From positions 186,001 to 250,000 of the forward strand of contig WHVA01000027.1 in the NCBI GenBank assembly GCA_015179125.1: 64,000 bases of DNA. Direction: 5' to 3'. The position numbers and the translations under genes were made by a program. The DNA is from Gautieria morchelliformis (taxonomy: Eukaryota; Basidiomycota; Agaricomycetes; Gomphales; Gomphaceae). This document shows, piece by piece, positions 16,231-52,166 of the stretch; the stretch's first letter is position 1, and each line of letters starts with the position of its first letter. The notes beneath the pieces were generated by a model. That model saw only the letters and a program-made list of their open reading frames with translations. It did not search any database and was not told where the DNA came from.

Positions 16231-17072
16231 ATTGTGTACCTCGGCATTTGCCGAGAAACCATATCGGATCCCGCTGCCAATTTTCAGGACGACAGCGACG
16301 GTCCAGAATACTTCTAGACACAAAGTACAGTACTTAGTTTGATCTGATTATTATTATTATGTCCGGATCTATCACAGCTTTCGAGGTCCTTTCATAAGTC
16401 ACATGCATCTGGCCAAGGGATATCGAGAGGATCGAAACGGCAAGTTCTTGTTGGTATGAAATGAAAAAGGCCAACTGAAAAATAGGGGAGCACGAGCACG
16501 AGCGAGGACGCCAGGTCGACTTGTTGCTTTGTCTCCGGCCAGGGTGAGGATGTGCGCTTTACGCACTAGTGTGCCGAGGCGTGCCAGGCTGTGTGAAGAA
16601 GGACGTGAGACAGGGTTGGACTGACATCAACAAATTAGCTCTATGTAGAAATTCAGTGCACAGGAAGAGGTCAATATGATGATTCTTACCATGCCGATTT
16701 GCATAATATCTGCGACGTCACTTTTGAGTCTTCATGCAATTTTAACAACACGGACAAGGGTTCAGAATATTGCGATAATCATATGGAACTAGGCTATGGA
16801 ACGAGAAAGATGGAAATGTATCGGCAGTGCACTAGTGATGATGTGGTGCCACTAGTACGTACTGGCCCTTCGGAGCAGACTCGCCTACATTGATGGGCCC
16901 ACATAAGGACTTCCACATTCATTCGCGTAGTACTAGCTTGCGAAGTAAGTAAGTATCTCGTGTATAGGTCCATGTAGATGCGTCTGGCACGATGGCAATG
17001 CCCACGATAGACGCTGCTAAGCCGCAAAGCTGTGCAGCCTGTGCTCTCGATAACTTCAACCAACTCGACACT
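16231..17072. other. Divergent intergenic region between VPS33 and NLR1
   Basis: 842 bp separate two genes that face away from each other, so the promoters of both should lie here. I see ATTATTATTATT at about 16349-16360 and GAGCACGAGCACGAGCGAGG at about 16488-16507 as small repeats, but no certain TATA box and no gene. Confidence 0.5.
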
Positions 17073-18666
17073 ATGGCTGCACTAGCAAACCTGGGGATAG
17101 TAGGCAAGTCCCTGACATGCAACCCGAACCTCTTGCTAGAATACTAACGAAAAGCGAAACAAATCAGCCAATGTCATTGCCGTCCTTCAACTCACGGGAT
17201 CGAATATCGGCGTGTGTTCCAAATACGTCGCTGGCGTGAAGAATGCACCCAGAGATCGGGATAGGATCACGACAGAGTTGGTGGGTCTGTGTACAGTGCT
17301 GACACAGGTTCTGCAGCTAGTACATGAAGAGACGGGAGGAACCTCCCGATTGGAGTCAGGACCGGCCTCTCGTTTGTCGGCTTTGAATAAGCAACTCCAT
17401 GTTTGCGGTGACGAGATGAAGCGTCTCCGGACGGCGCTGGGTGACGAGAGTGAGAATTTCGAGATGGGGGATCTCGAGGCGAGGCCGGATTGCAAAATTG
17501 AGGCGGTGCTGGGTCATGAGATGGCGGGTCTGGCAAAAGACCTTGGACCAAAAGGTGGCATGCAAGCATTGATGTGGCCGCTGAAGGAGGCAGAAGTCGA
17601 CAAGACTGTGGACAGTATCAGGAAGATCAAAGACTCGTTGATTATGGCGATGGAAGTAGATCAGATGTACGTTACCTTCGCTGCTTTCGACACAGTGCTG
17701 ACCATGCCAACAGACGCTTGACCCTGAAGATAGATAGTGGGGTCGAAGTGTTGCAGGAACAAGGTGCCAAGCTAAGCCAATCAGCGGAGGACATGAAAAG
17801 CGGTGTTCAATCCTTGCAGAGACAGACTGCAGAGAATAGCCAAGTTATGGAACAGGCCAAATTGGTAAGCCAGTCAACGCAGGACATGGTCCAATCTTTG
17901 CAGGGACAGGCTGCCAAGAATAGCCAGGCTATGGAACAAGCCAAATTGCGTACGTCACATGTTGCCAGTGTTCCCAAAGGTGGTAAGCTGATTCTGCAGG
18001 ATTCAATATGTAGAAGAGCATTGTCAAAAGGTCTATGACTGGTTGGCGGCTCCTGATCACGAAACAAAGCATAGAAATGCCCGTAGCATGCAACAGGGGA
18101 TGACTGGTTTATGGTTTGTGGAAGATGAACGCTTCCAAGAATGGCGAGAAGCTCCTCATTCTTTCCTTTGGCTCCATGGTATACGTGAGTCAGCTAAGCT
18201 GCACTATGCTGCTTTCCATTAATAGATGGTCACAGCTGGTGCAGGAAAAACAATCCTTTGGTATGTATATCATAATTGTCGTGAAATCATTCCTAACTAA
18301 CAAATGAACACATCAAGCTCAACCATCATTGAAGAACTTTCAATTCACTGCAGTTCTGACCCCTCCCTTGCAATAGCATTTTTCTATTTTGACTTCAACA
18401 ACAAGGACACCTTTCCAAACCCCGTGCTTCGTTCTCTGATCGAGCAATTGTCTGTACAATGCACAAGCATCCCCTCTGCCCTGGAGTCACTATTCTCTAA
18501 GAACAAGCAGGGTGGTGTACACCGAGACCCAGGTCAAGAGGATCTGATGTCAACCTTAAAAATGATCATCAGGAGCTTCCAGGCCATATATATTATTTTT
18601 GATGCGCTTGACGAATGCCCGGAGAGATCCAGATTTCTGAAAGTACTTGGAGAGGTACATGATTGG
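17073..18666 (+). CDS. NLR1 5' part: HeLo-like domain, coiled coil, first half of NACHT
   Basis: The start MAALANLGIV, spliced to ANVIAVLQLTG, matches the start of NLR2 (MAAALGLA, ASVIAVLQLTG), which fixes the ATG. This helical segment resembles the HeLo-like N-terminal domain of fungal STAND proteins (a family-level judgement). The exon at 17714-17949 is a coiled coil with two repeats of SLQ.QAA(E/K)NSQ.MEQAKL. Then come VYDWLAAPDHETKHRNAR, FLWLHGIPGAGKTIL (Walker A at about 312-319) and IYIIFDALDECPE (Walker B at about 410-418). The first intron is GC-AG (17104-17167, GCAAGT). The open frame stops 20 bases inside the Copia LTR, at the point where VHDW should continue. Confidence 0.85.
18662..18666 (+). 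repeat. Target-site duplication ATTGG of Copia-1, left copy
   Basis: ATTGG at 18662-18666 is repeated at 23926-23930 directly outside the two LTRs. The codons GAT TGG are completed on the left side and reading resumes in frame at 23931. Confidence 0.95.
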
Positions 18667-19164
18667 TGTAGAGGACAGGAATTATAGGCAGTAGGTATGG
18701 ACTTGTTAATGAAAAGAATAGACTAGAAATCAATTCACTCTCTCAGTGAATTTAGTGGTCACTCTAAATATATTATACACTACCTAGAAATCAATTCACT
18801 ACAGAGGATTTCTAGGTCAATAAATGCAAAGACTACTAGACTAATTTACTTGCCTCTCTCAGTGAATTTAGTGGTCACTGAGAGAGGGGGAAATGTGTTC
18901 CACTGCGCATGTACTACTACCCGGCCCTTTAGCGCCCAAGAGCTCGCGCGTCGAAGTCATTTCAGACTCCGCTGGGTGCAGCCGCTTGTGAAAGTAGGAA
19001 TAACAAGATGAAATAGAGAGATAAGGAATGAGTGGAAAATTTCGAAAATAACCAGAGAAATGGATGCATAATACAAGAACAATGTGAGAAGAAATTGGAA
19101 GGCCACACAACAAATTGGATATATTATGCTTGATTTTGGTGCAGGAGCATAAATGCACCCAACA
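18667..19164 (-). repeat. Copia-1 3' LTR
   Basis: On the element's own strand it starts TGTTGGGTGCATTTATG and ends CCTCTACA. It has the same length (498 bp) as the 5' LTR. The stretch CTTGAGGGGGCG just before it (19165-19176, minus) is the polypurine tract. Confidence 0.95.
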
Positions 19165-19177
19165 CGCCCCCTCAAGC

Positions 19178-22100
19178 TTAATATATTCCGATTTGCTCGT
19201 TGAGAATCTTCACTCTAGGACTAGGAAGTCCTTTAGTGAGGATATCTGCCAACATTTGTTCGGTTGGCAAATAAACGAGCTTGGCTTGTTGATTTTTGAT
19301 TATATCTCGAAGGAAATATAATCGGATGTCGAAATGCTTGGTTCTCGTGTGTTGTTGGGTGCCATACGTGATGGCAATGGCTGATTGATTGTCTGAATAA
19401 ACTTGGATGGGTCTGTTCAGTGGTTGGAATATTTCAGAAATAAAATGGCGCATCCAAAGAGCCTCTTTGCCTGCATGGGTCAGGGCGACGAATTCGGCTT
19501 CAGTTGATGAGAGGGCTACTATCGACTGTTTCTGGCAACTCCATGAAACAGTGCCTCCATCAATCTGAAATAAGTATGCCGAATACGAACGCCTATGACT
19601 CTGTGAACCCCAATCCGCATCTGAATACCCCATCAAGCCGTCTTGATTTCTTCCAAGTGTGAGTTTGTAATACTTCGTGCCTTTCAAATATTTGAAGACA
19701 CGTTTGACTGCATTCCAGTGTGTGCCACCTGGATTTTCAAGGAATTGCGAGAGTAATGACACCGCAAATGCAATGTCAGGTCGAGTGGCTACAGCCGCCC
19801 ACATCAGTGATCCTATAGCTTGCCTGTATGGAAACTTCGACATGGCTTTCTTGCCTCTCTCTGTAGAAGGACATTGGTCTTTAGATAATTTTACGGCTGG
19901 ATCAAGAGGCGTAGCATAAGTCTTTGCATCTTCGAGATTAAATTTTTTGATGATCTTCTCGATGTATGCAGGTTGTGAAATTGCAATGGTCTTCTTCTGC
20001 CAGTCTCTTTCGATTTTGAGATTCAATAGCCAATGAATCTCGCCTAGATCTTTCATACTGAAGACCTGAGCAAGATCTCGTTTGACTTCGTCCAGGACTG
20101 ATTGATTCTCAGCTGTGATGGTAAGATCGTCCACAGCTGTTGCAATGATCACATGCCCCTTTCCGCCACGTCTATAAAATACAGCCCCGTCTGTGGCTGA
20201 CGTAGTGAATCCTAACTTGTGGAATTCACCACTTAGACGTTTATACCATTCTCTTCCAGATTGCTTGAGGCCATAGAGTGCTTTCTTCAAAAGTAGCACT
20301 TCGCCTTTGTCTCCTGACTCATATCCATACGGCTGCTTCATGTAAATAGGTTCGGGCAACGTAGCATTGAGGTATGCATAGTCCACGTCCATTTGATGAA
20401 TAGGCCAGTCATTCCTAGCAGCAATGGCGCATATGATCCGTAGGGAGGATAACCGAGCAACAGGTGAGTATGTCTCATCATAGTCGACTCCAAACTTCTG
20501 TGTGAAGCCTTGGGCGACCATTCTCGATTTAGGCATTATTGGTTTCCCTTCTGGATTACGCTTCCAAAGGTAGACCCATTTATTACCGACAATGTTGGCT
20601 CCAGGAGGTGGTTTGGCTCGTTCCCACACTCCCTTGTCGATTAGGGCCTCATACTCTTTGTCCATTGATTTCTTCCATATAGGATTATTCAGAGCTTCGT
20701 CTGCATTGCTAGGTTCAATTTGACTCAAATCCGGCGCCTTGTTATTGTTTTGACCGTCGGTTAGAAACGCACTGATGGCACACTCATAGCTACTGATGCC
20801 ATCAATCTCGGAGGATAATTCTTGGTCGAATAAAACTTCTTCATGGTCCTCAACGTCCTCGTAAGCTAGCGTAGTCATATGTGCGCCAGTTTGTCTCTGA
20901 GTTTGAGATCTTGTCACGGGACCTGATGGGGCCGGCTGCACTTGTTGTTGACGGATCCTTTCGCTTCTCCTTATCGGTTCAGCTTCTCTAGGTCTGTCAT
21001 CAACTCCCTGAATAGGTTGCAGCTTTTCAAGATATTCTTCCGGTGCACTTTCATCAATTTCTTCGATCTTTGCCTCTTCGCTGACTAAGCGACCGGGCAC
21101 AGGCACTGATGCCGGAATGGCCTTCTTCTCCTCTTTAGACGTAGGTAGCTTGGATTCCTCAATAGAAATGATTGGGACCTTTCCCTTCTTCATTTCTGAA
21201 TCAAAGACAACGTTCCGCTCGACAGAAACTTTGTGCGAGTCAGGCCAATAAACATAATGACCATGGCTCTGCGCAGAAATTCCTATCCACCGAGCTCTCT
21301 TGGCACGAGCTGCCAATTTATCTCCCTGAGTGACTTTGACATAGATTTCAGTTCCCCACGCGTGAATGTCTTTGAGATTCGGTTTTTCATGGTGAATCAT
21401 CTCGTAGGGCGTTTTATCTGGTAGAGCTCTTGTATGCGTCCTGTTCCTAAGATAATTGGCATGCTGTATCGCATAGCCCCATAATATCTTAGGAAGGCCT
21501 GATTCTAGCAGCATGGCACGAGTTCTCTCAGTGAGAGTTCGGTTCAGGCGTTCCGCAACACCATTGGACTCTGGTGTGTCGTGTACCGTCAACTGATGCT
21601 TCGTGCCTTGTTTGGCTAGATGCTGTTCGAATTCAGAGCTCATATACTCGCCCCCTCGATCAGAAACAAGTGCCTTGATGTGCACATTTCTCTGTCGAAG
21701 CATTAAAGCCTCGTAGAGCTTGTATTTTGAGAATGCTTCTGATTTGTTCGCCATGAGATAGATCACCGATTCTCTTGAGTAATCATCGATAAAGGAGACA
21801 TAATATGACTTCTTATCGATTGTGAGGTGCCTTGCAGGTCCCCAGACATCAGAATAAATTCTGTCACCGAATTTTGATGTTCGGTCTCTGGGTTCTCGAG
21901 GAAGAGGTTTGCGCGCAATCTTGGCCTGAATACACGCATCACAGACAATTCTATCGCCTGTGGAGCTCAGTTCAATGCCCAATATCATGCCATGATTTAA
22001 TAGATGTTGTAGGGACTTCTGCGAGATGTGCCCCATCTTTTGATGAATTTCCATGGCAGATAAACACATATGGGCTTGAGCACTTGGTGACTGGAGGTCT

Positions 22101-23422
22101 AGTCGATATAAGCCATTGACTTTCGGTGCTTGCATCAATACTTTTCCAGCAGCATTAGATATTGTGCATTTCTGGCCACCGAGTCGAATGTCGTAGCCAG
22201 CATCATCGCACCGACCGATCGAGACGAGGGTAGCAGCAATTTTGGGTGCATAGTATGTATCTTGCAACGTGACTTCTACTGTTCTATCTCCAACCTTATT
22301 GGATAATACAAGCAGTCCTGAGCCAAAGGCATCAAAGGTACCTTTGTTGGCTGCTCGGATAGTCCTCGGCTGTGAGAATTGACAGTAGTTCCTCAATAAA
22401 TTTTTGTGAGGAGTCATATGCGATGTCGTTCCGGTGTCGAGTATGACTATAACTCCTGAGGATGTGCTCAAATTGAAATTAGAGCACTCGTCAAAATTGG
22501 TGAAGGCAAGATGCCCATCACCACTTTCCTCAGAAGTAGACTCTTCTTCGGCAACATTCGCTTTTGCTTTACCCTTCTTCTTCTTCTTGCCTTTGGCTTT
22601 CTTCTTCTGACGTGGTCCTTGACCTTCTTTACCACCTCCTTTAGCCCAGCAATTTTCGATGGAATGTCCAGGCTTTTTGCAGTTGGTGCATACATGCGCC
22701 TTCTGCCCCTTCTGGTCCTTCTTAGTAGATGAACCAATAAACACCTGCTCTTCTTGCGGGAGTGTTTTCTTCCTGTCATACTGAGCCTTTAGTACCCTAA
22801 TAATATTATCAGGGACCAATGGCATCCCGCATTCTTCAAGCGAAGTGGTAAGGGCGTTCATGACTGCCTCATAGGATGGTGGAAGTGATGCAAGGATGAT
22901 GTCCATGAATTCTTCTTCGGAAACTCTAGCTCCCATCTCATTAAGACGAGCATATAGGTCTTGGGCCTTGTCCAAGTGATCTCTCAAGTCTCCATCCTCA
23001 GGACATCTCATACTGCGGAGTTGTCTCTGCAGGCTGGTGAGGACCATCTTGGGCTTTTTGGTCATTTCATTGACCAGTGCATCCCAAGTCTCTTTTGCTG
23101 TCTTCTGCTTCTGTAGCATCAGGGCTAATGACTCTGACACTGAGACGATGATTTGGGTCTTGGCTTGTCCTTCTCTAGCAAGGTATCTCTCCAGCTTCTC
23201 CTCGGCCTTATCCATCTGAGTTTCCTCAGCTTCTGTTAGAATATGGCCTGGGGGCATGACTGGAGGATCAGGAGGTCGAGTGACTCTCCCTTCTACATGC
23301 TTGAGCAAATTTTTGGACTCGAAATAGCTGATGAGAGTGGCTCGCCACAATGGCCAATTACTTCCATCAGTAGCAAGCTTCTCAACACCCAATAGCTTCT
23401 CAGAAGTGTCTCCGGGGCCCAT
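19178..23422 (-). CDS. Copia-1 Gag-Pol polyprotein
   Basis: 1414 residues from ATG 23422, the first ATG after the LTR; it lies inside the primer binding site. Gag of the UBN2 type (1-280) ends with the zinc knuckle CTNCKKPGHSIENC. The protease active site is ILDTGTTSHM. Integrase has HQKMGH..CDACIQAK, then YSDVWGPA, SDRGGEYMS and PESNGVAERLNRTL (D,D,E). The RT region has KSRMVAQGFTQKFGVDY, YGLKQSGREWYKRL and AVDDLTIT, where most Copia elements have YVDD. RNase H has YSDADWGS and SSTEAEFVAL. The frame ends 13 bases before the 3' LTR. Gag forms particles, and Pol makes and integrates the cDNA. No frameshift separates gag from pol. It appears intact. Confidence 0.96.
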   Translation of the reverse strand: MGPGDTSEKLLGVEKLATDGSNWPLWRATLISYFESKNLLKHVEGRVTRPPDPPVMPPGHILTEAEETQMDKAEEKLERYLAREGQAKTQIIVSVSESLALMLQKQKTAKETWDALVNEMTKKPKMVLTSLQRQLRSMRCPEDGDLRDHLDKAQDLYARLNEMGARVSEEEFMDIILASLPPSYEAVMNALTTSLEECGMPLVPDNIIRVLKAQYDRKKTLPQEEQVFIGSSTKKDQKGQKAHVCTNCKKPGHSIENCWAKGGGKEGQGPRQKKKAKGKKKKKGKAKANVAEEESTSEESGDGHLAFTNFDECSNFNLSTSSGVIVILDTGTTSHMTPHKNLLRNYCQFSQPRTIRAANKGTFDAFGSGLLVLSNKVGDRTVEVTLQDTYYAPKIAATLVSIGRCDDAGYDIRLGGQKCTISNAAGKVLMQAPKVNGLYRLDLQSPSAQAHMCLSAMEIHQKMGHISQKSLQHLLNHGMILGIELSSTGDRIVCDACIQAKIARKPLPREPRDRTSKFGDRIYSDVWGPARHLTIDKKSYYVSFIDDYSRESVIYLMANKSEAFSKYKLYEALMLRQRNVHIKALVSDRGGEYMSSEFEQHLAKQGTKHQLTVHDTPESNGVAERLNRTLTERTRAMLLESGLPKILWGYAIQHANYLRNRTHTRALPDKTPYEMIHHEKPNLKDIHAWGTEIYVKVTQGDKLAARAKRARWIGISAQSHGHYVYWPDSHKVSVERNVVFDSEMKKGKVPIISIEESKLPTSKEEKKAIPASVPVPGRLVSEEAKIEEIDESAPEEYLEKLQPIQGVDDRPREAEPIRRSERIRQQQVQPAPSGPVTRSQTQRQTGAHMTTLAYEDVEDHEEVLFDQELSSEIDGISSYECAISAFLTDGQNNNKAPDLSQIEPSNADEALNNPIWKKSMDKEYEALIDKGVWERAKPPPGANIVGNKWVYLWKRNPEGKPIMPKSRMVAQGFTQKFGVDYDETYSPVARLSSLRIICAIAARNDWPIHQMDVDYAYLNATLPEPIYMKQPYGYESGDKGEVLLLKKALYGLKQSGREWYKRLSGEFHKLGFTTSATDGAVFYRRGGKGHVIIATAVDDLTITAENQSVLDEVKRDLAQVFSMKDLGEIHWLLNLKIERDWQKKTIAISQPAYIEKIIKKFNLEDAKTYATPLDPAVKLSKDQCPSTERGKKAMSKFPYRQAIGSLMWAAVATRPDIAFAVSLLSQFLENPGGTHWNAVKRVFKYLKGTKYYKLTLGRNQDGLMGYSDADWGSQSHRRSYSAYLFQIDGGTVSWSCQKQSIVALSSTEAEFVALTHAGKEALWMRHFISEIFQPLNRPIQVYSDNQSAIAITYGTQQHTRTKHFDIRLYFLRDIIKNQQAKLVYLPTEQMLADILTKGLPSPRVKILNEQIGIY

Positions 23423-23427
23423 AACCC
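23410..23427 (-). promoter_or_regulatory. Copia-1 primer binding site, half-tRNA-iMet type
   Basis: Directly after the 5' LTR (…CTACA) the element strand reads GGGTTATGGGCCCCGG. This pairs with an initiator-tRNA anticodon stem-loop (..GGGCCCATAACCC..) rather than with a tRNA 3' end. Internal priming on tRNA-iMet is known for Drosophila copia and yeast Ty5. The ATG of gag lies within it. Copia-2 has the same motif at 40111. Confidence 0.7.
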
Positions 23428-23925
23428 TGTAGAGGACAGGAATTATAGGCAGTAGGTATGGACTTGTTAATGAAAAGAATAGACTAGAAATCAATTCACT
23501 CTCTCAGTGAATTTAGTGGTCACTCTAAATATATTATACACTACCTAGAAATCAATTCACTACAGAGGATTTCTAGGTCAATAAATGCAAAGACTACTAG
23601 ACTAATTTACTTGCCTCTCTCAGTGAATTTAGTGGTCACTGAGAGAGGGGGAAATGTGTTCCACTGCGCATGTACTACTACCCGGCCCTTTAGCGCCCAA
23701 GAGCTCGCGCGTCGAAGTCATTTCAGACTCCGCTGGGTGCAGCCGCTTGTGAAAGTAGGAATAACAAGATGAAATAGAGAGATAAGGAATGAGTGGAAAA
23801 TTTCGAAAATAACCAGAGAAATGGATGCATAATACAAGAACAATGTGAGAAGAAATTGGAAGGCCACACAACAAATTGGATATATTATGCTTGATTTTGG
23901 TGCAGGAGCATAAATGCACCCAACA
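23428..23925 (-). repeat. Copia-1 5' LTR
   Basis: 498 bp, no difference from the 3' LTR noticed in reading. It must carry the element promoter. It includes an internal inverted pair, CTCTCAGTGA...TCACTGAGAG, near 23615-23645. Confidence 0.95.
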
Positions 23926-23930
23926 ATTGG

Positions 23931-25995
23931 AAGCTGGATACATTACACCTGATGGCAACTAGTCGGAAAGAGGGTGATATTCAGAAGGCGCTCGGTGGTT
24001 TGGTGTCACATGAAGTATCCATGGACGAGCATCTCATCAACAGTGACATCCAAGTGTATGTTTCCAGGAGACTTGTGGAGGATGTTGAGTTTAGGATGTG
24101 CTCAGCAGGTGAGAAGGAGATGGTGATGACTACCTTGATGCAGGGTGCACAAGGGATGTGAGTGGTCATTTACCTGTGTGTGAATGCTTTCTGACAGAAC
24201 AGCAAGGTTTCGATGGGTTGTCTGCCAACTGGATGCACTACAGAAATGCAAAACTCCTGCGGCACTTAAGAAAGCACTCACCCGTCTCCCAAAGACACTT
24301 AATGAGACATACGATCGAATTCTCATTGCTATTGATGAGGATGACAAGCAGGGTGCTCTGAGCCTGCTCAAATGGCTGGCTTTCTCTCTTGACACATTAT
24401 CTCTGGATCAAGCCGTGGACGTGATCGCTACAGATCCTGATGCAATAGATGAACCTCTGTTTGACCTGAGCCGGCGGCTTCGGGATCCACGAGACATCCT
24501 TACCATATGTTCAAGTCTTGTTACCATTACATTCCATGAGGACAGCAGCAATAAGGGCAATATCGACCACCATGATGACAGGGTTCTCTCAACCAAAGCA
24601 GGAGAGATCAGACTGGCACACTTTTCTGTGCGAGAATACCTGATCTCAGAACATCTTCGCACAAGCACAACTGCACTTTCATGTTACCATTTTAACGAAA
24701 AAATTGCACATGTATTCATTGCAAAGACATGTCTGGCATACCTGCTGCAATTTGACCAGGATAATGGTATGAACTCAAATACAGCCAGGTCCTATCCACT
24801 ATCTCAATATGCCGCATATAAATGGATGGACCATGCTGGGTGGGATCCAGCTGGTGACTGGGATGATCTACATGGGCTGATCATGACACTCTTGGAGCCC
24901 ACTAGTACTGTTTATGTCAACTGGGTATGGCTTTACTGCAAGAATGATCCACAGGCAAGATCTGGGATGACACCTCTTAACATTGCGGCCAAGACTGGGT
25001 TGGAACGAGCATGCCAATGTCTGGTGCAGAAAGGATCAGACATGAATGCACTTGGAGGATACTATGACACACCACTACAGCTGGCAGCATCACAGGGTCA
25101 TCATGCAATTGTCAGGTTACTCCTAGAGAAGGGTGCCAATGTGAATACACATGAAAGAGACTGTAGGAGTGGAGCACACTATGGGAGTGCACTGAAGGCA
25201 GCGGCATCAGGAGGTCATGATATGATTGTCCAGTTGCTGATAGAAAAGGGTGCGGATGTGAATGCTCATGGAGGTGTCTGTAGGGGTGCACTGCAGCTTG
25301 CAGCATCACATGGTCATGATACGACTGTCCTGTTGCTCCTGGAGAAGGGTGCGGACATGAATGCTCAGGGAGGACACTATGGGAGTGCACTGCAGGCAGC
25401 AGCATCAGAGGGTCATGATATGATTGTCCGGTTGCTCCTAGAGAAGGGAGCAGATGTGAATGCACATGGACGACGCTATGGGAGTCCACTGCAGGCAGCG
25501 GCATCACAGGGTTATGATACAATTGTCCGGTTGCTCCTAGAGAAGGGAGCAGACATGAATGCACAGGGAGCACACTATGGGAGTGTGCTGGAGGCGGCAG
25601 TGACAGAGGGTCATTATATGACTGTCCTGTTGCTCCTAGAGAAGGGTGCAGATGTGAATGCACAGGGAGGAGAGTATGGGAGTGTGCTGAATGCAGCGGC
25701 ATCACGGGGTCATGATATGATTATCCAGTTGCTCCTGAAGAAGGGCGCAGATGTGAATACTCAGGGAGGATACTATGGGAGTGCATTGCAGGCTGTGGCA
25801 TCACAGGGTCATCTTACAATTGTCAAGTTGCTCCTAGAGAAGGGCGCCAACATCAATGCCCAAGGAGGAGTGTATGGTGGTGCATTGCAGGCAGCAGTGG
25901 CGAATGGTCACGATGTGATTGCCTCGTTGCTGCTGGAGATGGCTGCAGTGGTCCCCAATGTACACCCATGTACAGGGTTGCCACAGTTGAAGTTG
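23931..25995 (+). CDS. NLR1 middle part: end of NACHT, helical region, 10 ankyrin repeats
   Basis: It resumes exactly in frame after the right ATTGG with KLDTLHLMATSRKEGDI, the sensor part of NACHT, matching KVHLLATSRTDHDI in NLR2. One intron (24158-24206) is followed by FRWVVCQLDALQKC, PKTLNETYDRIL and LLKWLAFSLDTLSLDQAVDV, then RLAHFSVREYLISEHL, typical of fungal NACHT proteins. Ten ankyrin units of about 33 residues start at 24967. Most have the form YGSALQAAASEGHDMIVRLL followed by LEKGADVNAQGG, and neighbouring units are very similar in DNA. The frame stays open to 26142, but an in-frame GT-AG intron (25996-26059, 64 nt) leads into a Tup1-like domain. An alternative donor in the same phase is at 25960. 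Confidence 0.85.
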
Positions 25996-26059
25996 GTGTG
26001 TTGCCAGCCCTGCACTAGATACCTTTCCACCATGTGCTCATTCCCCTCTCTGGTAACAG

Positions 26060-27850
26060 GGATCAGGATGGGTAGCCACTTTCAGCAAGCATGTCCCGCA
26101 ACGCCGAGTAGATGTGGATTTGGTCCATACACTGAAGCATGACCATCAATGGGGGTGAGTCACTATGGCTGAGTTGTTTTGGGGCTGTGGGTTTGGTTTT
26201 GGCTGTAACAACCTTGGATCTGATTCATCTCACTTCCATACTAACCTGCATCTTCCAGTGTTATGCGGTTCATCCACTTCTTGGCCGACAGGCGCTACCT
26301 CATGACTGTATCCCAACAGGTAGATACAACATTCCACACGGTCACCGGGAAAATGGCATGGTGAGTGATCACCTCATCTTTTGCTTTGTCTCCCCTGAAC
26401 CTCTCCCTTTCCTTCATCTCCCTGCACATTGATTACACTCCCAACAGTCTGCTCAGTGATGACACCGATCTCCACTTCCTTGACCTCAATAGCATGTGCT
26501 TTAGCCCCAACAGATGCTACCTCACGACAGGCAGTGATGATGACAAGATTAGGGTGTGTGTTCCCTCATGTCATGGGCTAACAGCCTTCATTTACCATTT
26601 GCCTACACCTTGATTGGCTCTAATTCCTGAAATATGTGCTCATCTATGGACAATGTGTTTTCTTTCACCTGCACATTTATCCCTTGCAACCCACACTCCC
26701 TTTGCCCCACATCACTCTCAGATGTGGGACACTGCGGCCAACCATATCCTCTCCCACTTCAAGGGTCATAAACAATATGTTTCCTCCCTTGATTTCTCAC
26801 GTGACGGCCAGCTCATCATTGCCAGCTCCCAGGACAACACTGTGTGCATCTGGAATATGGAGACCAGGCAGCACAGGAGACTGTCAATCACACTACCAGT
26901 GAACGTGCGTCTTATCATCACGTATTGTCATGCATGGTATGCTGATACACATCATCGTGCTTATGTGGGTGTTGATGCCTGGGTATGGTGTGTTTTGTGT
27001 TGGTTTTGGCTTGCATTATTTAGCTCAGTGCTGATGTATTCCCTGTCTCCATCTCTCCTGATGGGTCCCTCATTGCTGCAGGCTACCATGACACTATCAT
27101 TCGCCTTTGGGATGTCCAAACAGGGCAACTCATTGAGTCCCTCATGGGTCACACTGAAAGTGTGTCCAGCATGGTGTTCACACCTAATGGAAAGGGCCTT
27201 GTCAGTGGGGGCTCAGGCGGGAGCTTGAAGTATTGGGATTTGGAGCCATGGCTAAGCAGTGCACAAAGAGGACTGTTGAAGCAGTCGTATGAAGTAGGTG
27301 AGGATGTGGGCTTGGCCACAGAGAAGAGTGGACAGAATGAAGGTATGTGTGTGTGTACAGTTGAGTTTATAGGCCATATGGTGAGTGGCTGCCTGTGTTT
27401 CCTTTTTCTTCCTTTGCTTGCTGTCAGGGTAAATCTTCACTCTTTGCGAACCATGATATTCATTAGTGTGGATGTAGGGTGTCGTGAGCTCCATCGCCGT
27501 GTCACCTGACAACCAATGGGTCGTATCCGGTTCAGATGACCAGAGTGTGCGGTTCTGGGACCTGCACACAGGGGAAGAACAGCTCATACTGCATGGACAC
27601 AGGCATGGTGGTACATCCCAGTGCATTTGTATCATGCATGTGTATGACTCATCTCTCATTGCCCAATGTGTGCATGTATGCGCGCACCTGTAGTTCTTTC
27701 TGTCGACCTGAGTCAGACCGGGGACATGCTGGCCACAAGCGACATGGACGGGCACGTGAATTTATGTGCGTGTTTATCACTCGTTTATACAAGACGCTCA
27801 TGTTGACGCTGATGGGTCGACTCACAGGGAGCTACACGACGCTACAATGA
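26060..27850 (+). CDS. Tup1-like WD40 beta-propeller, C-terminal part of NLR1
   Basis: Eight exons joined by GT-AG introns in one frame: 26060-26154, 26259-26360, 26448-26553, 26722-26898, 27024-27380, 27478-27610, 27694-27765, 27828-27850. The text follows the corepressor Tup1 from just before its propeller to its last residues: VDVDLVHTLKHD, VMRFIHFLADRRYL, LNSMCFSPNRCYLTTGSDDD, SLDFSRDGQLIIASSQDNTV with IWNMET, VSISPDGSLIAAGYHDTII with LWDVQTGQL, VFTPNGKGLVSGGSGGSL with KYWDLE, SSIAVSPDNQWVVSGSDDQS with VRFWD, VDLSQTGDMLAT and a final WSYTTL. The Tup1 N-terminal tetramerisation domain and Q-rich linker are absent; ankyrin repeats precede it instead. It is clearly diverged but keeps its splice sites. 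It could also be a separate truncated TUP1 paralogue, since no start codon of its own was identified. Confidence 0.75.
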
Positions 27851-29530
27851 AGGCGCTGGAAAACATATAAACTTGAGCAATAATAGTGGATGTTTTTGTC
27901 GTATACTCGTATACTGTATTAGCACGAGCCGATCACACATAATAATCACAAAATAAGTTTTACATAAACCCCCCCAAAAATTTGGCCGTACCGCAAAGTC
28001 CGCAATGATTGCATTTGCGCTATGAAGGAGAGAGAGAGAGCTTTGGGGCCGCAAATATCCATAAGTACTTATGGACCCTCGAAGTGCATCTAAATAGCCT
28101 CGGGCTTCCGGTCATTCATGTTTTTTTTTGTTGAGGTCAGATATGATGGTTACGGATGCCAGTCCATACCTTATGTCAATGTAACGGGTCACGGTACAGT
28201 ACGGTATTAATACGGTGTCCCTACCCAGAGGACACTTGAGGAGATCATGAGTTGTTTAATTTTTACGATATAACAGAGGATTTTTTTTTTTTGGAGTGAC
28301 AATGATTCATAAGCCTTTTTCTTTATGCATCCGGCTAATACAAAACGACCGTCGACCGCATCCTAGGGTCAAGTCACTTGCCGTCGTTGAACTCCTCCAG
28401 CTATCAAAGCGCACAATAAGCTAGTCCTGCCTACTAGCTCCCGACCAATCTGCATCCCTAGACAGCTAGTAATCATAACGGTCTGAGCTTCACGAAGAGG
28501 GATATACCTTTCCACGGTATATTCATTGTGAATATTTTCCCTGTTGGGTACCCAACACCCATACGCTCTCTGATATTATCAGTAAACTTGGGCTGTACCT
28601 CTGCCAGTAGCTTCGGACGGACTGTACCTGTGTCGCGTTGGCCATTATAGCGTTCAGGAACGTCTGCTAGGCGACAAGTACCTGGTGTCAACAATCGAAT
28701 CGTCCTGGCGATATCCATCCATCATGACGTAAATGCCGAATTTTCATCATACTCATAATGCCTGCTACATAGCCTGCCTCGTCTCAGGCTTGCTGCCGCC
28801 ATACGAGTGCTTCATACTCTCACTCGAGATGCGATCTGGGACAGGCCGCGGGTCCGTAGCACTTGATTAAGGCATGGAGGGTTTGGCCGGAACCGTCCTC
28901 TTGATGTTGGTATATATCCAATTATAGGAGTCAATAGTTAGCTGAACTTTACAACCTAGGCTGGCGACGGAGCTCCCTATTTCGGCATGCACAGCGCTCA
29001 ACGAGAGCCCTGGTGCAGATATCGGTACCTGATTCAACATTTAGCTTCACAGAATATAGATTATCACATTCGGAGCCCCTTCACTGCTACCTTAAACACC
29101 CAACGTCGTCCAATTGACGGTGGGTGAGGGGAAACATGACAATCTATGGCTATTTGAAGCTTTGAGGTCCGTGGTCACTCAACAGCCATACAGTATGTAG
29201 TGGAGTAGGATCATCATTCGCAGTCTTGCCGCCATCCGACGGCTGCAAAGATAGTTTCGTACCTCCTCGTTGATGCGTTCTTACCGCAGAAAACCTCCTC
29301 CAATGTCTCGTGTTGCTGATTCCGCCTCTTTCAGGTTACTTTTGTTTCACGGTCCATCTTAAAAGGATCCAGACCTGGTCGGTTTTCCGAGCCCAGCAGA
29401 ACTTGAACATCGCCGAACGATGATGATCGATATTTAAAAGTAATTCTACATACAGAATACTACGAGTCGACATCCAACGCAATCCGGGACGACATAAACT
29501 CGGCCTCTAACACGTTTAACCTCGCTGGTC
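27851..29530. other. Intergenic, no supported gene
   Basis: It holds the NLR1 3' end and the esterase promoter. A poly-T/poly-A rich part lies at 28120-28320, with CGGTACAGTACGGTATTAATACGG near 28191-28214. An 81-codon frame at 28473-28718 (minus) has an ATG but no recognisable domain. Confidence 0.45.
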
Positions 29531-34567: not shown

Positions 34568-37500
34568 CTAGCTCAGTCTGCTACGAATTGCTGCAGTAAG
34601 AATCGAGTAGCGCAGCAATCGCACGATGACCTTCAAAGGGCGCCGCCTGCCTTTGTCGCCTCCTTTTGGGTTCATTTTGGCCCCCGCCTTTAGCAGCAAC
34701 CGAACAATGCCATCATGCTGGAACGACGCTGCCACCCGTAGTGCACCAATTCCGTCTGCGTTCACGTCCGCGCCCTCCTCCAACAGCAGCCGTATGATCC
34801 CCTCGTGACCACCATAGGTCGCCGCTATCAACGCATTCCCGTACTGTCCTCCTTGCGCATTTACTTTCGCTCCCTTTTCAAGTAGCAGCCGAACGACACC
34901 CGCGTGGCCCTCCCGCGCTGCGCTCTGCAGCGCACTATCAGTCTTGCGGTCCTTTGCGTTCACTGCCGCCCCGAGCTCCAGCAAGAGTCGAACGACGCCC
35001 TCGTCGCCGTCGGACGCCGCGTCGCGCAGAGCCCTAGCGACATACTCTCCGCCATCTGCGCTTACTTTTGCGCTCACTTTTGCGCTCTGCAGCAGCAGCC
35101 GGACGATGCCCACCTCGCCTCTGCGCGCCACCGCATGCAGCACACCTCCATACCGCCCTCCATTTCTGTCCACTTTTGCTCCCTCCTCTAGCAGCAGCCG
35201 GACGATGCTTTCGTGGCCCTTAAGCGCCGCTTCTAGCAGCGCAGTTCCTTTGAACCCTTGTTCTGCGTCCACATTCGCTCCATTCGCTAGCAGCAGTCGG
35301 ACAATACTTTCATGACCGTTGGACGCCGCCTCTTGTAGTACACTAGCGTCACGCTTTCCTCGACTTGCATTTACTTCCGCCCCGTTCTCCAGCAGCAGGC
35401 GAACGATGCCCTCGTAGCCATTAGACGCCGCACCATGCAGCGCACTTGCATATTCTCCCCCTCCCTGGACATTTACTTCCGCTCCATTCTCCAGCAGCGG
35501 GCGAACGATGCTCTCGTAGCCATTGGACGCCGCACCATGCAGCGCACTTGCATATTCCCCCCCTCCCTTGGCATTTACTTTCCCTCCGCTCTCCAGCAGC
35601 AGCCGAACGATTCTATCATGGCCATGGGACGCCGCCTGTTGCAGCGCACTTCCATACACTCCTCCCTGAAAATTCACATCAATTGTTTCCTCTTCCAGCA
35701 GCAACTGCACAATTCCCATATGGCCGTTGGACGCCGCAGATTGCAGCGCACTCATACAGCTTGCATCCCTGGCATTCACATCGGCCCCCTTCTCCAAAAG
35801 TAACCGAATGGTGCTCTCGCGGCCTTCAGACGCCGCAGCCAGGAGCGCATTGCCAAACTTTCCTTCCGGTGCGTCCACTCCTGCTCCGCTTTCCAGCAAC
35901 AGCTGAATGATATTATCATGAGCATGATATGCCGCGGCCCACAGCGCACTGCTATAGAATCCATCCAGGTCTGTTCCCTTCGCCAGCAGCAACTGAACGA
36001 TGCCATCCTGACCACAACGTGCGGCGACCTGGAGAACATTCTCTTTCGTGCTTCCCGGTGCATTCATATCCGCTCCCTTGTCTAGCAGTAGTTGAACGAT
36101 GTCCACATGGCCCAAACTTACAGCAAGCTGGAGAGCATTACCATCCTTGCCGCCCGGTGCATTCATATCCGCCCCCTTGTTTAGCAGTATCCGAACGATG
36201 CTCTCGTGGCCAGAACGGGAAGCAGCCTGCAGCGCATTGCCTCCATGGCCTCCTGGTACTTCTACATCCGCTCCGTTCTGCAGCAGTAACCGAATGATGC
36301 CCTCGTGGCCGGAACTTGCTGCGGCCTCCAGCGGATTCCCATTCCCGGCGCTGTATGCATTCACTCGTGCTCCCTTCTCTAGCAACAGCCCCGCGATGCC
36401 CTCGTGACCAGAGCTTGCCGCAGCTCGCAAAGCATTGCCGAAGTATCCTCCTCGTGCATTGACATCCGCTCCCATGTCCAACAGCAACCGAACGATGGCG
36501 TCGTGACCTAAACATGCTGCTGCCTGCAGCGCACTACCTCCATCCGCGTTCACGTCCGCTCCATTGTCGAGCAGCAGCCGGATGGTGCCCTCGTGGCCAC
36601 TATACACCGCCCCCATCAGCGGACTTCTATACTCGTCCCCTTGTGTGTTTACGTCCGCTCCTTGCTGCAGCAGGAAACGAACGGTGGGTTCGTTACCCTC
36701 CGAGGACGCTACCTGCAACGCATGTCCCAATAGGCCTGGTGCGGATATGTTTGGGTCGTGCTCGAGGAGTAACGTAATGATGTCATATTGACATTCCGAG
36801 AACGCCGCCTGCAGAGCACTGCCAAAGATCCCTCCCTGTGCGGCCACGTTTGCACCGTGCTCTAGCAGCATCCGAACGATACACGCATTGCCATGATACG
36901 CCGCTGCCTGCAAGACGCTTCCATACCTCTCTGCTGGCGTATTCACGTCCGCGCCCGTCTCCAGAAGTAACCAAACAGTGTCGTCGTGACCGCCTAACAC
37001 TGCCGCCTGCAATGCACTGCCGTGTGCTCCTTCTGCGTTAACATCCGCTCCATTCTCAAGCAACACCCGGACGACTTCAAAATGTCCTTCTGACGCCGCC
37101 GCCTGCAAGGGACCACCGAACAATCCGCCCTGCACGGCCGCGTCTGCTCCATGTTTCAGTAGCAAGCGAACAATGATCGCATGTCCACCATACGACGCTG
37201 CCTGCAATGCATTGTCAAAATACCCTCCCTGTACATTCACGTCTGATCCATTGTCCAACAAACTTCGTGTTGCCCTCTCCAGTCCGGCCAGTGATGAATA
37301 ATAAAGAGGTGTACATTTGGTTTTGGGTCGCCGCGGATCATCACTTAAATCAGGATTGTAAAGCCTCAACCAGTTTCCATACATAGCGTCCTTGGATTGA
37401 AAGAGGGCCATAATGAGCTTGTGCAGAGTATCAGACTCCGAGTCGGAAACGCCACATGTATCTGAGTGAGCATGTCGAGTCCACTGTGTAGCAGCATATT

Positions 37501-39714
37501 CAGAGAGTGGGTATGCTCTGGTCGTGGTTGAGTCTACACCGCCTTGCTTGTCAAATTGCAGCAAGTAGGCCAGACATGTTTGAGCGATAAAGGTATCGGC
37601 CATCGTTTTGTTGAAAGAATAAAAGGAAACCACGGTCTCCCCCCTGCGAAGATGCTCTGAGATCAAATACTCTCTCACAGAAAAATGAGCCAGTCTAAGC
37701 TCTTCTGTGGGCGAGACTCGACCCCCATCTAAGTTGTTGTTATGCTTGCTGCTGCTAGCTTCATTTGTGTTGACCTCAGTATTGCGTACCATGACGGCCG
37801 GGGCTGTAGTTATAACGAGACTGGAACATATGGTCAGAATGTCTCGAGCATGCCGAAGCCGTCGACGTCGATCGAACAGAGGACCGTCTTCTGCAGTGGG
37901 ATCGGTAGCCAGCACCTCCACCGCCTCGTCCAGCGAGATAGGGCGGACGGAGAAAGCGAGCCATTTCAACAAGGTGAGAGCATCTTGCCTATCGTCTTCA
38001 TGAATATCTGAGAGAATCTTATCATACGTCTGGTATAGGGTCTTTGGGAGACTCTTCAGTGTCTTCTGGAGCGCGGCAGGGGAACGACACTTTCGTAGAG
38101 CATCCAACTGACAAGCAACCCATCGGAACCTTCCTGTCCTATTAGTACCCATCGTTAAGGAGGACGGAAAACCACATTACATCCCATGGGCACCCTTCAT
38201 TAACGTAGTCTCGATCACTTTCTTCTCCTCTGCCGAGCACAACTGAAATTTGACATCATGCTCAAGTGATTTCGACACATGTATTCGGATGTCACCGTCG
38301 ACCTGATTCTCGTCCATGGATACTTGGTGAGAAACCAGGGGATTTAGCACTTCTTCAATGTCGTGATCTGTTCGACTAGTTGCCAGCAGGTGGACTTTGT
38401 CAAGCCCCCAGTCGTGGATCCGTCTAAGCAAGGCTAGCAGCTCACTGCGTTCCTGGCATTCGTCGAGGGCATCGAGAACGATATATACGTTCTGGAAGCC
38501 CCCAACGAGGGACTTGACGGTCGACATCAGTGCTTCTGGAGTGGGCGATCGCTGTCCTTCTGCATTCTCATCAAACAATTTTGTCAGAGCGTCGGGGATA
38601 CTCCCGCATTGCAGAGCTAACTGTTTGACCAGAGATCGAAGGATGATGGCTGGCCTTGCTTCAGTGTTGTGAAAATCAAAATAGAAGTAGGTGATGGCGA
38701 GCGATGAATCTGATAGGCAGTCACGCGTGATCTCATTAATGACTGTAGAGCTTTTCACATTCGTACGTTAGCATAGTGGGTGGAAATGACCGAATAATCG
38801 AGAAAAACTTGCCATAAGACGGTTTTTCCTGCACCAGCTGTCCAAAACGTTTAGTGGCAAAAAATAATTATGAGGTTCATAGGACTCACGGATGCCGCGA
38901 AGCAAAAGGAACGAGTTGCTTCTAATTTTCCAATCCTTGAAACATTCTCCTTGCACAAACCATGAGCCAGTCGATTCTTGTCGCTGGTTACAGGCATTCA
39001 AGTGTTTTGCCTCGTGATCTGGGGCCGACAGCCAATTATACACCTGTTCGTCTACGGAAAGGCAGCAAGAAACAGGGGTAGCTGCGTTCGCATGAGACAG
39101 CAAAATCACGCATACCCACGACACGGCTATGTATTGTCAACGTCAAACGCCTGCCAGGACGATTAGGATTGGTCTGAAGGGAGGGATGTGAAACGTACGT
39201 CTGATCTATGTTCAGGGTCGAAGATAATCGCTGCTGGAACTGCCCTAGCTGATCGAGAGTCTTTTTTACTTCGCCTTCTTTGAATGGCCACATCAGTGCT
39301 TGCATGGGACTATTAGTCTCCAACTTCTTCTTGAGACCGTCCAGCTCGTCACGGCAACGAGGAAGGCCGTCAGCATCCGTTATCAGTTTACTCATAGCTG
39401 GTAAACGGGAGGATGTTCTGGATTCCTCATTACCTGGGCAAGGGACAGATATATCGGGTTCCCTGTCCTCCACTAGCTCTCGCACATCTTCCAGCACTCT
39501 CTGCAGTCCCAACAACTGATCGATAATCTTCTTTTTATCTCTAGACGCATTCTTGACGCCATTTCCATAGCTGTAACACGCGGTGATAGTGGCTCCAGTC
39601 AGCTGAAGAACAGCAATGACACTCGCTGATTGACATGGTCATTACTGGTGGCATGCGGGCATCGAGAGTCGATCCAGGTGGAGACTTACCTGCTAATCCT
39701 AGAGCTGCAGCCAT
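34568..39714 (-). CDS. NLR2: HeLo-like/NACHT receptor with 27 ankyrin repeats
   Basis: Seven exons: 39714-39690, 39625-39199, 39150-39116, 39051-38890, 38837-38813, 38750-38181, 38129-34568; 4806 nt, 1601 residues, one frame. The N-terminus MAALGLA-type start is followed by SVIAVLQLTGATITACYSYG, a HeLo-like helical domain. Then come QALMWPFKEGEVKKTL, VYNWLSAPDHEAKHLNA, GIPGAGKTVLC (Walker A, about 216-224), VYIVLDALDECQE (Walker B, about 316-323), LLATSRTDHDIEE, FRWVACQLDALRKC, and RLAHFSVREYLISEHLRRGE. From about residue 680 to the end are 27 ankyrin units of the form ALQAAASNGHE.IVRLLLENGADVNA. In fungal NLRs the repeats are the ligand-sensing part and the N-terminus the effector. Intron 5 (38812-38751) is GC-AG. 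It appears intact. A Copia element lies 173 bp upstream of the ATG. Confidence 0.9.
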
Positions 39715-40126: not shown

Positions 40127-40189
40127 CATAACTAAACTACTACAAACCTAACTACGCTCCATATTCCAATAACTCAATACCGATCAACG

Positions 40190-50429: not shown

Positions 50430-50913
50430 GAAGTCGAACTGAGGCAGGTGTAGGGACCACCGTGCTTGGTGTCAGTTCAATTTCTTGGACATGTGGAAAT
50501 ACTGAAGGTTCTTGTGGTCTGTCCAGATCTCGAACAGACACAGAGCACCCTCAAGGAAGTGTCGCCACTCCTCCAGTGCTTGGATGATTGCCAGCATTTC
50601 CTGGTTGTGGATCTCATAATTCTGCTCCACCAGACTAAGGCTTTTGGAGAAGAAGGCCACCTTCCACCATCTTCTGACAACTGCTGTGACAAGACCGCTC
50701 CAGTGGCTGCATCGGAAGAATCCGCTTCAACTCAATAAGGGTGAGAGTTGTCGGTAAAGATCAGGACTGGGGCAGAAGTGGTCAGCTCCTTGAGTTTGTC
50801 AAAGGAGGCCTGTTCTGGCTCCCCCCACTGCCATCCAATGTCCTTCTTGGTGAGGTTGAAGAGGGAATGGGCATGGCAGGAGAAGTCCTTGATGAACTGC
50901 CGGTATAAATTGA
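50430..50913 (-). pseudogene. Family-A Gypsy RNase H region
   Basis: Frame-shifted pieces: YRQFIKDFSCHAHSLFNLTK, the thumb-end of RT, at 50910-50850; [36 protein letters not shown]; and [20 protein letters not shown], then [17 protein letters not shown] to 50472. This order is that of a Gypsy RT/RNase H junction. It is broken by frame changes near 50660-50700. Confidence 0.7.
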
Positions 50914-50918
50914 CAAAC

Positions 50919-52161: not shown

Positions 52162-52166
52162 CAAAC

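What the first reader, a model, noticed from the sequence alone, without database searches (positions are those of the whole stretch)
24967..27850. NLR fused to a Tup1-type corepressor WD40 domain
The ankyrin exon of NLR1 can be spliced by a 64-nt GT-AG intron (25996-26059), in phase 0, to eight exons spelling a whole Tup1-like propeller down to the terminal WSYTTL. The Tup1 N-terminal tetramerisation domain is missing. Fungal NLRs with WD40 repeats normally carry HET-E-type repeats. A propeller taken from a host transcriptional corepressor looks like an integrated decoy or a new output domain. All internal splice sites and frames of the propeller are kept although it is diverged, which suggests selection until recently.
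Basis: partly seen in the sequence, partly recalled or inferred. Interest (0 to 1): 0.88.

Follow-up and report, generated by a model that had tools for sequence, protein, structure and literature searches.

The report
Immune receptor carrying captured corepressor propeller
In a false-truffle fungus, an immune-type receptor gene captured part of the cell's own gene-silencing protein TUP1, multiplied into dozens of copies, and diversified the face with which TUP1 normally grips its partners, so the captured part now looks like a fast-evolving recognition surface.

Summary
Confirmed, and larger than stated. Intron 25996-26059 joins, in phase 0, the ankyrin exon of a NACHT-type NLR to eight exons of a complete TUP1-type propeller ending at 27850. 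In twenty fetched sister copies from the same genome (Gautieria morchelliformis) the junction is kept (GT and AG 21/21, window included), and 32 of 41 TUP1-type propeller hits genome-wide have the terminal ankyrin exon upstream. One sister is publicly annotated as one fused protein; another reads as an intact 1,879-aa ORF. The fusion intron and seven propeller introns match the resident TUP1 in place and phase; 17 propellers form one clade: one capture of genomic TUP1 DNA without Tup_N. The scaffold is conserved (dN/dS 0.42), but the 21 predicted top-face contact positions are hypervariable (2.23 vs 0.89 bits, p = 4e-11) and keep the TUP1 residue in 22 of 349 cells, whereas Gautieria and yeast TUP1 agree at 19 of 21. 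Best reading: a corepressor propeller recruited as the variable sensor of an NLR family, like HET-E but independent. Decoy and output readings are weaker; relaxed constraint remains possible. The window copy is broken by a recent Copia insertion. Function is inferred.

The parts
17073..17103 (+). exon 1 with ATG (MAALANLGIV..), followed by a probable GC-AG intron
   Evidence: 100% match to exon 1 of copy L015
17168..17666 (+). exon 2, N-terminal domain, probably of the HeLo-like / PF17111 kind
   Evidence: 86.5% to L015 exon 2; family alignment; P0121 N-terminus homologous to PF17111-bearing NLR N-termini
17714..17949 (+). exon 3, linker of coiled-coil look
   Evidence: 94.9% to L015 exon 3
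18014..18184 (+). exon 4, before the P-loop
   Evidence: 89.5% to L015 exon 4
18236..18260 (+). exon 5, P-loop (GAGKTIL)
   Evidence: 100% to L015 exon 5
18318..18666 (+). NACHT exon, part before the Copia insertion
   Evidence: 91% to L015 exon 6; NPHP3_N in that L015 exon
18667..23925 (-). Copia-1 element inserted in the NACHT exon; 498-nt LTRs identical; target duplication ATTGG
23931..24157 (+). NACHT exon, part after the Copia insertion
   Evidence: 89% to L015 exon 6
24198..25995 (+). exon with end of the NACHT region, ankyrin repeats and linker ..LPQLKL
   Evidence: Pfam Ank_2 E 1.2e-69; 82% over its first 1,751 nt to L015 exon 7
25996..26059 (+). fusion intron, 64 nt, phase 0; at the place of the native TUP1 intron SELKKE|GSDW
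   Evidence: GT and AG kept in 21/21 copies; same place in TUP1; used in public model P0121
26060..26154 (+). propeller exon 1 (GSGWVATFSKHVPQRRVDVDLVHTLKH..)
   Evidence: 75% to TUP1 over 28 residues
26259..26360 (+). propeller exon 2 (blade 1)
26448..26553 (+). propeller exon 3 (blade 2)
26722..26904 (+). propeller exon 4 (blade 3)
27024..27380 (+). propeller exon 5 (blades 4-5 and loop)
   Evidence: acceptor at 27023, not 27028
27478..27610 (+). propeller exon 6 (blade 6)
27694..27765 (+). propeller exon 7 (blade 7)
27828..27850 (+). propeller exon 8 (SYTTLQ and stop TGA)
   Evidence: matches the last exon of TUP1

Best explanation
One NACHT-ankyrin NLR gene in the lineage of Gautieria morchelliformis captured, as genomic DNA with its introns, the 3' part of the resident TUP1 gene (WD40 propeller and the intron before it, without Tup_N). 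The fused gene multiplied to about 32 or more copies. In the fused protein the propeller most likely acts as the ligand-sensing end of the NLR: its scaffold is held by purifying selection, while the top-face positions with which TUP1 holds repressors were freed and diversified copy by copy. Binding of a non-self or modified-self protein would release the NACHT domain to oligomerise and bring the HeLo-like N-termini together, probably for regulated cell death. Shown here by computation: fusion, origin, single clade, amplification, conserved scaffold, hypervariable contact positions. Inferred: ligand binding, NACHT activation, cell-death output. The window copy itself is a recent casualty of a Copia insertion.
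For: Fusion: donor and acceptor in 21/21 copies; in 17 of 21 the last ankyrin repeat reads in frame into the linker; L015 reads as one 1,879-aa ORF; P0121, a public model of the copy on C444, is one NACHT-ANK-propeller protein using the same intron. Family: 32 of 41 propeller hits have the terminal ankyrin exon upstream on the same strand, 30 of them at 0.98-1.10 kb. Origin: fusion intron plus seven propeller introns coincide with TUP1 in place (allowing for small indels) and phase; TUP1 has one extra; shared SKHVPQRR; one NLR clade, 100/100, 17 rows against 3 TUP1 rows. Sensor: 21 contact positions (R1-2, R1, D-1; rule and Tup11-Fep1 calorimetry seen in passages of PMC3419727) have 2.23 bits against 0.89 in 333 other columns, p = 4e-11; 32 bottom-turn columns 0.84; 15 of the 42 most variable columns are contact positions, p = 3e-11; TUP1 residue kept in 22 of 349 cells; Gautieria against yeast TUP1 identical at 19 of 21. 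dN/dS at these sites 1.03 (bootstrap 0.73-1.45), rest 0.42. It holds in 11 copies with undamaged propellers alone, p = 6e-10.
Against: No transcript, protein or ligand evidence. dN/dS at the contact sites is about 1, not above it, so relaxed constraint there is not excluded; the sites are far diverged (dS 0.77). The fourth HET-E-type site (residue after the blade Asp) is only mildly variable (1.12 bits). Only 10 of 21 copies pass every test (ankyrin and propeller in frame, no internal stop, all eight junctions canonical); the others have a non-canonical splice site (4), an internal stop (4), a frameshift in the propeller (2) or in the linker (L021), so part of the variation may be decay. The HeLo-like assignment is weak by Pfam (2 of 11 members, best E 0.0074, under the cut-off) and rests on homology of the P0121 N-terminus to NLRs that carry the domain. 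Contact positions were assigned by a sequence rule, not on a structure of these proteins.
Confidence: 0.72

Rival explanations
1. Integrated decoy: the TUP1 propeller was captured because parasites or rival strains target TUP1, and it still serves as a bait that resembles TUP1.
For: It is a duplicated piece of a host hub protein at the C-terminus, as in the integrated-decoy idea discussed for fungal NLRs (PMC12258605, passages). Corepressors of the Groucho/Tup1 family are effector targets in plants (PMC12886408, passages).
Against: The contact face is not kept: 22 of 349 cells retain the TUP1 residue while yeast and Gautieria TUP1 agree at 19 of 21. I know of no effector that targets a fungal TUP1 (not searched).
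Confidence: 0.15
2. New output domain: the propeller still meets repressors or chromatin partners and lets the activated NLR change transcription or titrate TUP1 partners.
For: The propeller is undamaged in 11 of 21 copies.
Against: Top-face residues that bind repressors are replaced copy by copy; Tup_N is missing; an N-terminal domain of probable HeLo-like kind already fills the usual output position.
Confidence: 0.05
3. Two adjacent genes: the ankyrin NLR ends at 26142 and the propeller is a separate or dead TUP1 fragment that happens to lie behind it.
For: Unspliced, the ankyrin frame runs to a stop at 26140-26142. Nine of 41 propeller hits lack the terminal ankyrin exon upstream, the true TUP1 and its tandem duplicate among them. 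In 4 of 21 copies the ankyrin frame does not reach the linker.
Against: Junction kept in 21/21 copies, place equal to the native TUP1 intron, public fused model, intact 1,879-aa ORF; unspliced frames end at different places in or near the intron in different copies.
Confidence: 0.03
4. Scaffold without selected recognition: the fused propeller multiplied as a passenger of NLR duplication and its surface drifts under relaxed constraint.
For: dN/dS at contact sites about 1; 11 of 21 copies show some damage.
Against: Bottom-face turn columns are conserved (0.84 bits against 2.23), so loss of TUP1 partners alone would have to free just one face; all 17 copies have different sets of contact residues.
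Confidence: 0.17

Closest known systems
HET-E / HET-D / HNWD (NWD) receptors of Podospora anserina
   Same: NACHT receptor with a C-terminal WD40 propeller whose interaction face is hypervariable. The selected codon pairs described there (7/9 and 25/27, each flanking a conserved site, in the d-a loop and the b-c turn; PMC1805685, abstract and passages) fall, by my own mapping, on R1-2, R1, D-1 and the residue after the blade Asp; the first three are strongly variable here, the fourth only mildly.
   Different: Propeller from TUP1 with unlike blades and no DNA repeats found in it, placed behind an ankyrin array; diversity lies between paralogues, not in reshuffled near-identical repeats.
Fungal NACHT-ankyrin NLRs with an extra C-terminal domain (for example ANK plus SPRY, or a C-terminal kinase)
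   Same: Canonical NLR with a further domain at the C-terminus, discussed as binding domains or candidate integrated decoys (PMC12258605, passages).
   Different: The added domain is a TUP1 propeller of traceable origin, amplified to about 32 copies, with diversified contact positions.
Tup1 / Tup11 / Groucho corepressors
   Same: Homologous propeller, same intron positions, about 53% identity to the resident TUP1.
   Different: No Tup_N, fused to NACHT-ANK, repressor-contact residues replaced.
Plant NLR partnership with TOPLESS-type corepressors
   Same: Links an immune receptor with a Tup1-type corepressor (PMC7935258, title and start of abstract in a listing; TOPLESS as effector target in PMC12886408, passages).
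   Different: There two separate proteins, as I recall; here one fused polypeptide whose corepressor contact residues are not kept.

Membership tests
Fungal NLR (NACHT type) | NACHT nucleotide-binding domain with P-loop | tested here: met
   NPHP3_N E 1.1e-21 in L015; NPHP3_N and NACHT precomputed in P0121; P-loop PGAGKT in the L015 model. In the window the exon is split by Copia.
Fungal NLR (NACHT type) | N-terminal effector domain of a known kind | tested here: inconclusive
   Pfam PF17111 in 2 of 11 members, best E 0.0074, under cut-off; blastp of the P0121 N-terminus to 13 PF17111-bearing NLRs: 13 of 13 match, best E 1e-19, weakest 0.003.
Fungal NLR (NACHT type) | C-terminal superstructure-forming repeats (ANK, TPR or WD40) | tested here: met
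   Ank_2 E 1.2e-69 in the window exon, plus the propeller.
Tup1 corepressor | TUP1-type WD40 propeller | tested here: met
   52.8% to resident TUP1 over 360 columns; intron positions shared.
Tup1 corepressor | Tup_N tetramerisation / partner-binding domain | tested here: not met
   PF08581 found only at C419 and C1048 in the genome.
Tup1 corepressor | Conserved repressor-contact residues on the top face | tested here: not met
   22 of 349 cells keep the TUP1 residue; Gautieria and yeast TUP1 agree at 19 of 21.
HET-E / HNWD receptors | WD40 array of near-identical, reshuffled repeats | tested here: not met
   Repeat search of 17000-29000 (minimum 30 nt) finds ankyrin and LTR repeats only.
HET-E / HNWD receptors | Hypervariable residues on the propeller's interaction face | tested here: met
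   (variability met; positive selection not shown).
Integrated-decoy NLR | Extra domain derived from a host protein | tested here: met
Integrated-decoy NLR | Domain still resembles the effector's target at the contact surface | tested here: not met
Integrated-decoy NLR | A parasite effector binds the domain | not testable with these tools
   needs binding experiments

The most novel reading that the evidence does not exclude
The propeller of a conserved transcriptional corepressor was turned, after one capture by an NLR, into a diversified recognition domain carried by dozens of paralogues: an independent second invention of the HET-E principle from a non-repetitive, host-derived propeller. 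Its first step may have been decoy-like, with the bait surface later released to follow changing ligands.
Probability: 0.5. Interest if true: 0.9.

Novelty: new variant of a known kind. Interest (0 to 1): 0.8.

Why it matters
It gives a traceable birth of a variable immune-recognition domain: donor gene, capture point, introns, amplification and the diversified positions can all be read in one genome. That makes an open question testable, namely how fungal (and other) NLRs obtain new sensor domains, and whether host-derived domains start as decoys and later become free sensors. The partner-binding face of Tup1 proteins has been mapped by mutation in yeasts (PMC3419727, passages), so changes can be interpreted residue by residue.

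Tried and rejected
1) Searching the 5.8-billion-protein set with the whole propeller was swamped by ordinary WD40 proteins (3,179 hits, 120 listed). The N-terminal/NACHT part was more informative: of the 120 listed rows (475 hits in all) only P0121 lists WD40 as well as ankyrin families. With the TUP1-specific first blade 12 proteins passed among 84 candidates; P0121 itself is 56% identical to Gautieria TUP1, the 11 others 26-35% over their best stretch, so they are ordinary WD40 proteins, some with NACHT. Both searches need shared words, length limits and predicted proteins, so absence elsewhere, above all in other Gomphales, is not shown.
2) Acceptor 27028 for propeller exon 5 was my error; 27023 is right. 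Of the 21 aligned copies, L010 (frameshift) and the near-duplicates L009, L013, L019, L023 were left out of the 16-copy set used for entropy, dN/dS and tree; L022 was corrected by two bases at an exon end; L028 was cut at its 3' frameshift. P0121 was added as 17th row for entropy and tree, not for dN/dS.
3) Retrocopy origin rejected: introns are shared with TUP1. HET-E-type origin rejected: identity 53% against 35%. Chance placement rejected: 32 of 41. The cut at 41 hits is mine (E from 2.5e-47 to 7.4e-17; the next row is 2.0e-14, from a long uninterrupted WD40 frame).
4) Structure prediction was not tried: by the tool's description spliced proteins would not be accepted, and P0121 exceeds 1200 aa.
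5) Literature: the listings show no title or abstract start that describes an NLR fused to a Tup1 propeller; in PMC4986451 and PMC12258605 the word search found 0 occurrences of Tup/Tup1. Only passages, abstracts or listings were seen, and most subscription papers are not held.
Full report
OBSERVATION. The window lies in a 122-Mb fungal assembly (G000:C304:186001-250000). I identify it as Gautieria morchelliformis: public proteins P0121 and P0122 of that species come from contigs of 108,880 and 90,967 bases, the lengths of contigs C444 and C522 here, and P0121 maps to C444 at 99% over residues 431-949. Gautieria is a genus of Gomphales, Basidiomycota. At 24198-25995 an exon encodes the end of a NACHT region, ankyrin repeats and a linker. 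A 64-nt intron at 25996-26059 joins it in phase 0 to eight exons whose frame runs to the stop at 27848-27850. The result is a complete TUP1-type propeller, 52.8% identical to the resident TUP1. The 5' exons of the gene are in place, but a Copia element at 18667-23925, with identical 498-nt LTRs and a 5-nt target duplication, splits the NACHT exon.

NOT A ONE-OFF. A search of the own genome with one propeller exon gave 41 TUP1-type hits, window included, before the many hits in long WD40 frames begin (the cut is mine). The window's 20 best relatives were fetched with flanks. In an alignment of the window with these 20, the fusion donor GT is kept in 21 of 21 and the acceptor AG in 21 of 21. In 17 of 21 the last ankyrin repeat reads in frame into the linker. 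Eleven of 21 propellers have no internal stop and canonical junctions throughout; four have a non-canonical splice site, four an internal stop and two a frameshift. Ten copies, the window among them for this part, pass all tests; L021 has an undamaged propeller but a frameshift in the linker. A search with the terminal ankyrin repeat and linker places that exon upstream, on the same strand and within 3 kb, of 32 of the 41 hits, 30 of them at 0.98-1.10 kb. The nine others are the true TUP1, its tandem duplicate (L035), two copies truncated upstream (L019, L023) and five not fetched. A junction DNA pattern occurs 14 times in the genome and its reversed control never. Copy L015 reads as one open frame of 1,879 aa: N-terminal domain, NACHT, ankyrin array, propeller from residue 1524. 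P0121 is a public gene model of the copy on C444, already one protein and using the same intron, though the model seems to retain one propeller intron.

ORIGIN. The resident TUP1 lies at C419, with Tup_N exons and propeller. Its intron ..SELKKE|GSDWCAVFSKHVPQRR.. stands exactly where the fusion intron stands in the NLRs (..LPELKL|GSGWVATFSKHVPQRR..). The seven propeller introns also agree in place, allowing for indels of up to three codons, and in phase; TUP1 has one more. The 17 NLR propellers form one clade against three TUP1 sequences, support 100/100. So one piece of genomic TUP1 was fused in frame behind an ankyrin array, and the fused gene then multiplied. That the ELK residues before the intron are TUP1-derived is likely but rests on three residues.

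WHAT THE PROPELLER DOES NOW. Published work on WD40 proteins, including calorimetry of Tup11 with Fep1, places partner contacts at three positions per blade, R1-2, R1 and D-1 (PMC3419727, passages). I assigned these by sequence. At the 21 positions Gautieria and yeast TUP1 agree at 19, against 177 of 311 aligned residues overall. In the 17 NLR propellers the TUP1 residue is kept in 22 of 349 cells, mean entropy is 2.23 bits against 0.89 for 333 other columns (p = 4e-11), and shifting the positions by 1 to 6 residues either way lowers it to 0.58-1.48. Columns in the turns of the opposite face average 0.84 bits (32 columns). The 11 copies with undamaged propellers give the same picture (p = 6e-10). 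Nei-Gojobori dN/dS is 0.42 for the rest and 1.03 (bootstrap 0.73-1.45) for the contact sites, over all 120 pairs of 16 copies; of 200 random sets of 21 other sites 95% lay under 0.72 and the highest was 1.21. Hence the scaffold is kept and one face is hypervariable. That is the signature of a recognition domain and resembles HET-E, where selected codons sit in the same two loops (PMC1805685, abstract and passages; the position-by-position mapping is mine, and the fourth HET-E position is only mildly variable here). It speaks against a preserved bait or a preserved corepressor function. It does not prove positive selection, since values near 1 also fit relaxed constraint.

MECHANISM. Most likely the propeller is the sensor: a ligand bound on its top face changes the ankyrin/NACHT region, the NACHT domains assemble, and the N-termini act. 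The N-terminal domain of P0121 is homologous to PF17111-type (HeLo-like) N-termini of other fungal NLRs (13 of 13 compared, best E 1e-19), although Pfam itself barely sees the family. Cell-death output is therefore inferred from the family, not shown. The ligand is unknown.

COMPARISON AND NOVELTY. Fungal NLRs with ANK or WD40 ends are known (PMC4986451, passages), as are extra C-terminal domains discussed as decoys (PMC12258605, passages). A TUP1-derived propeller behind an ankyrin array appeared in none of the listings of my literature searches, and in the protein searches only in Gautieria, within their limits. I class it as a new variant of a known kind: an NLR with a newly captured, diversified sensor domain.

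Noticed in passing
L035 (G000:C419:39800-42300): A tandem partial duplicate of TUP1 (propeller plus the exon end before it) lies about 6 kb from the true TUP1 propeller; no Tup_N was found there. It could be a relic of the kind of piece that was captured.
   Followed up: partly
window 34568-39638, minus strand: A second NACHT-ankyrin NLR with an ankyrin exon of 1,202 aa; no TUP1-type exon was found near it in the window.
   Followed up: partly
G000:C1048:120344-120451: A second place with a Tup_N match (PF08581, 26.9 bits, 52 with its neighbours) apart from TUP1.
   Followed up: no
G000 C186 (two places), C140, C204:190029, C399: Five TUP1-type propeller hits without the terminal ankyrin exon upstream; not fetched; three have an internal stop in the matched stretch.
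   Followed up: no
window after 17103 and L015 1110-1162: The first intron of the NLR seems to use a GC donor (GCAAGT in L015); the first exon is identical in window and L015.
   Followed up: partly
window 40136-44212 and about 48900-53100: A second Copia-type ORF of 1,358 aa and reverse-transcriptase/integrase pieces of Gypsy look (by eye).
   Followed up: no
G000, many contigs: The genome also has many WD40 hits in long uninterrupted frames, HET-E-like by look, so two kinds of WD40 receptor may exist side by side.
   Followed up: no
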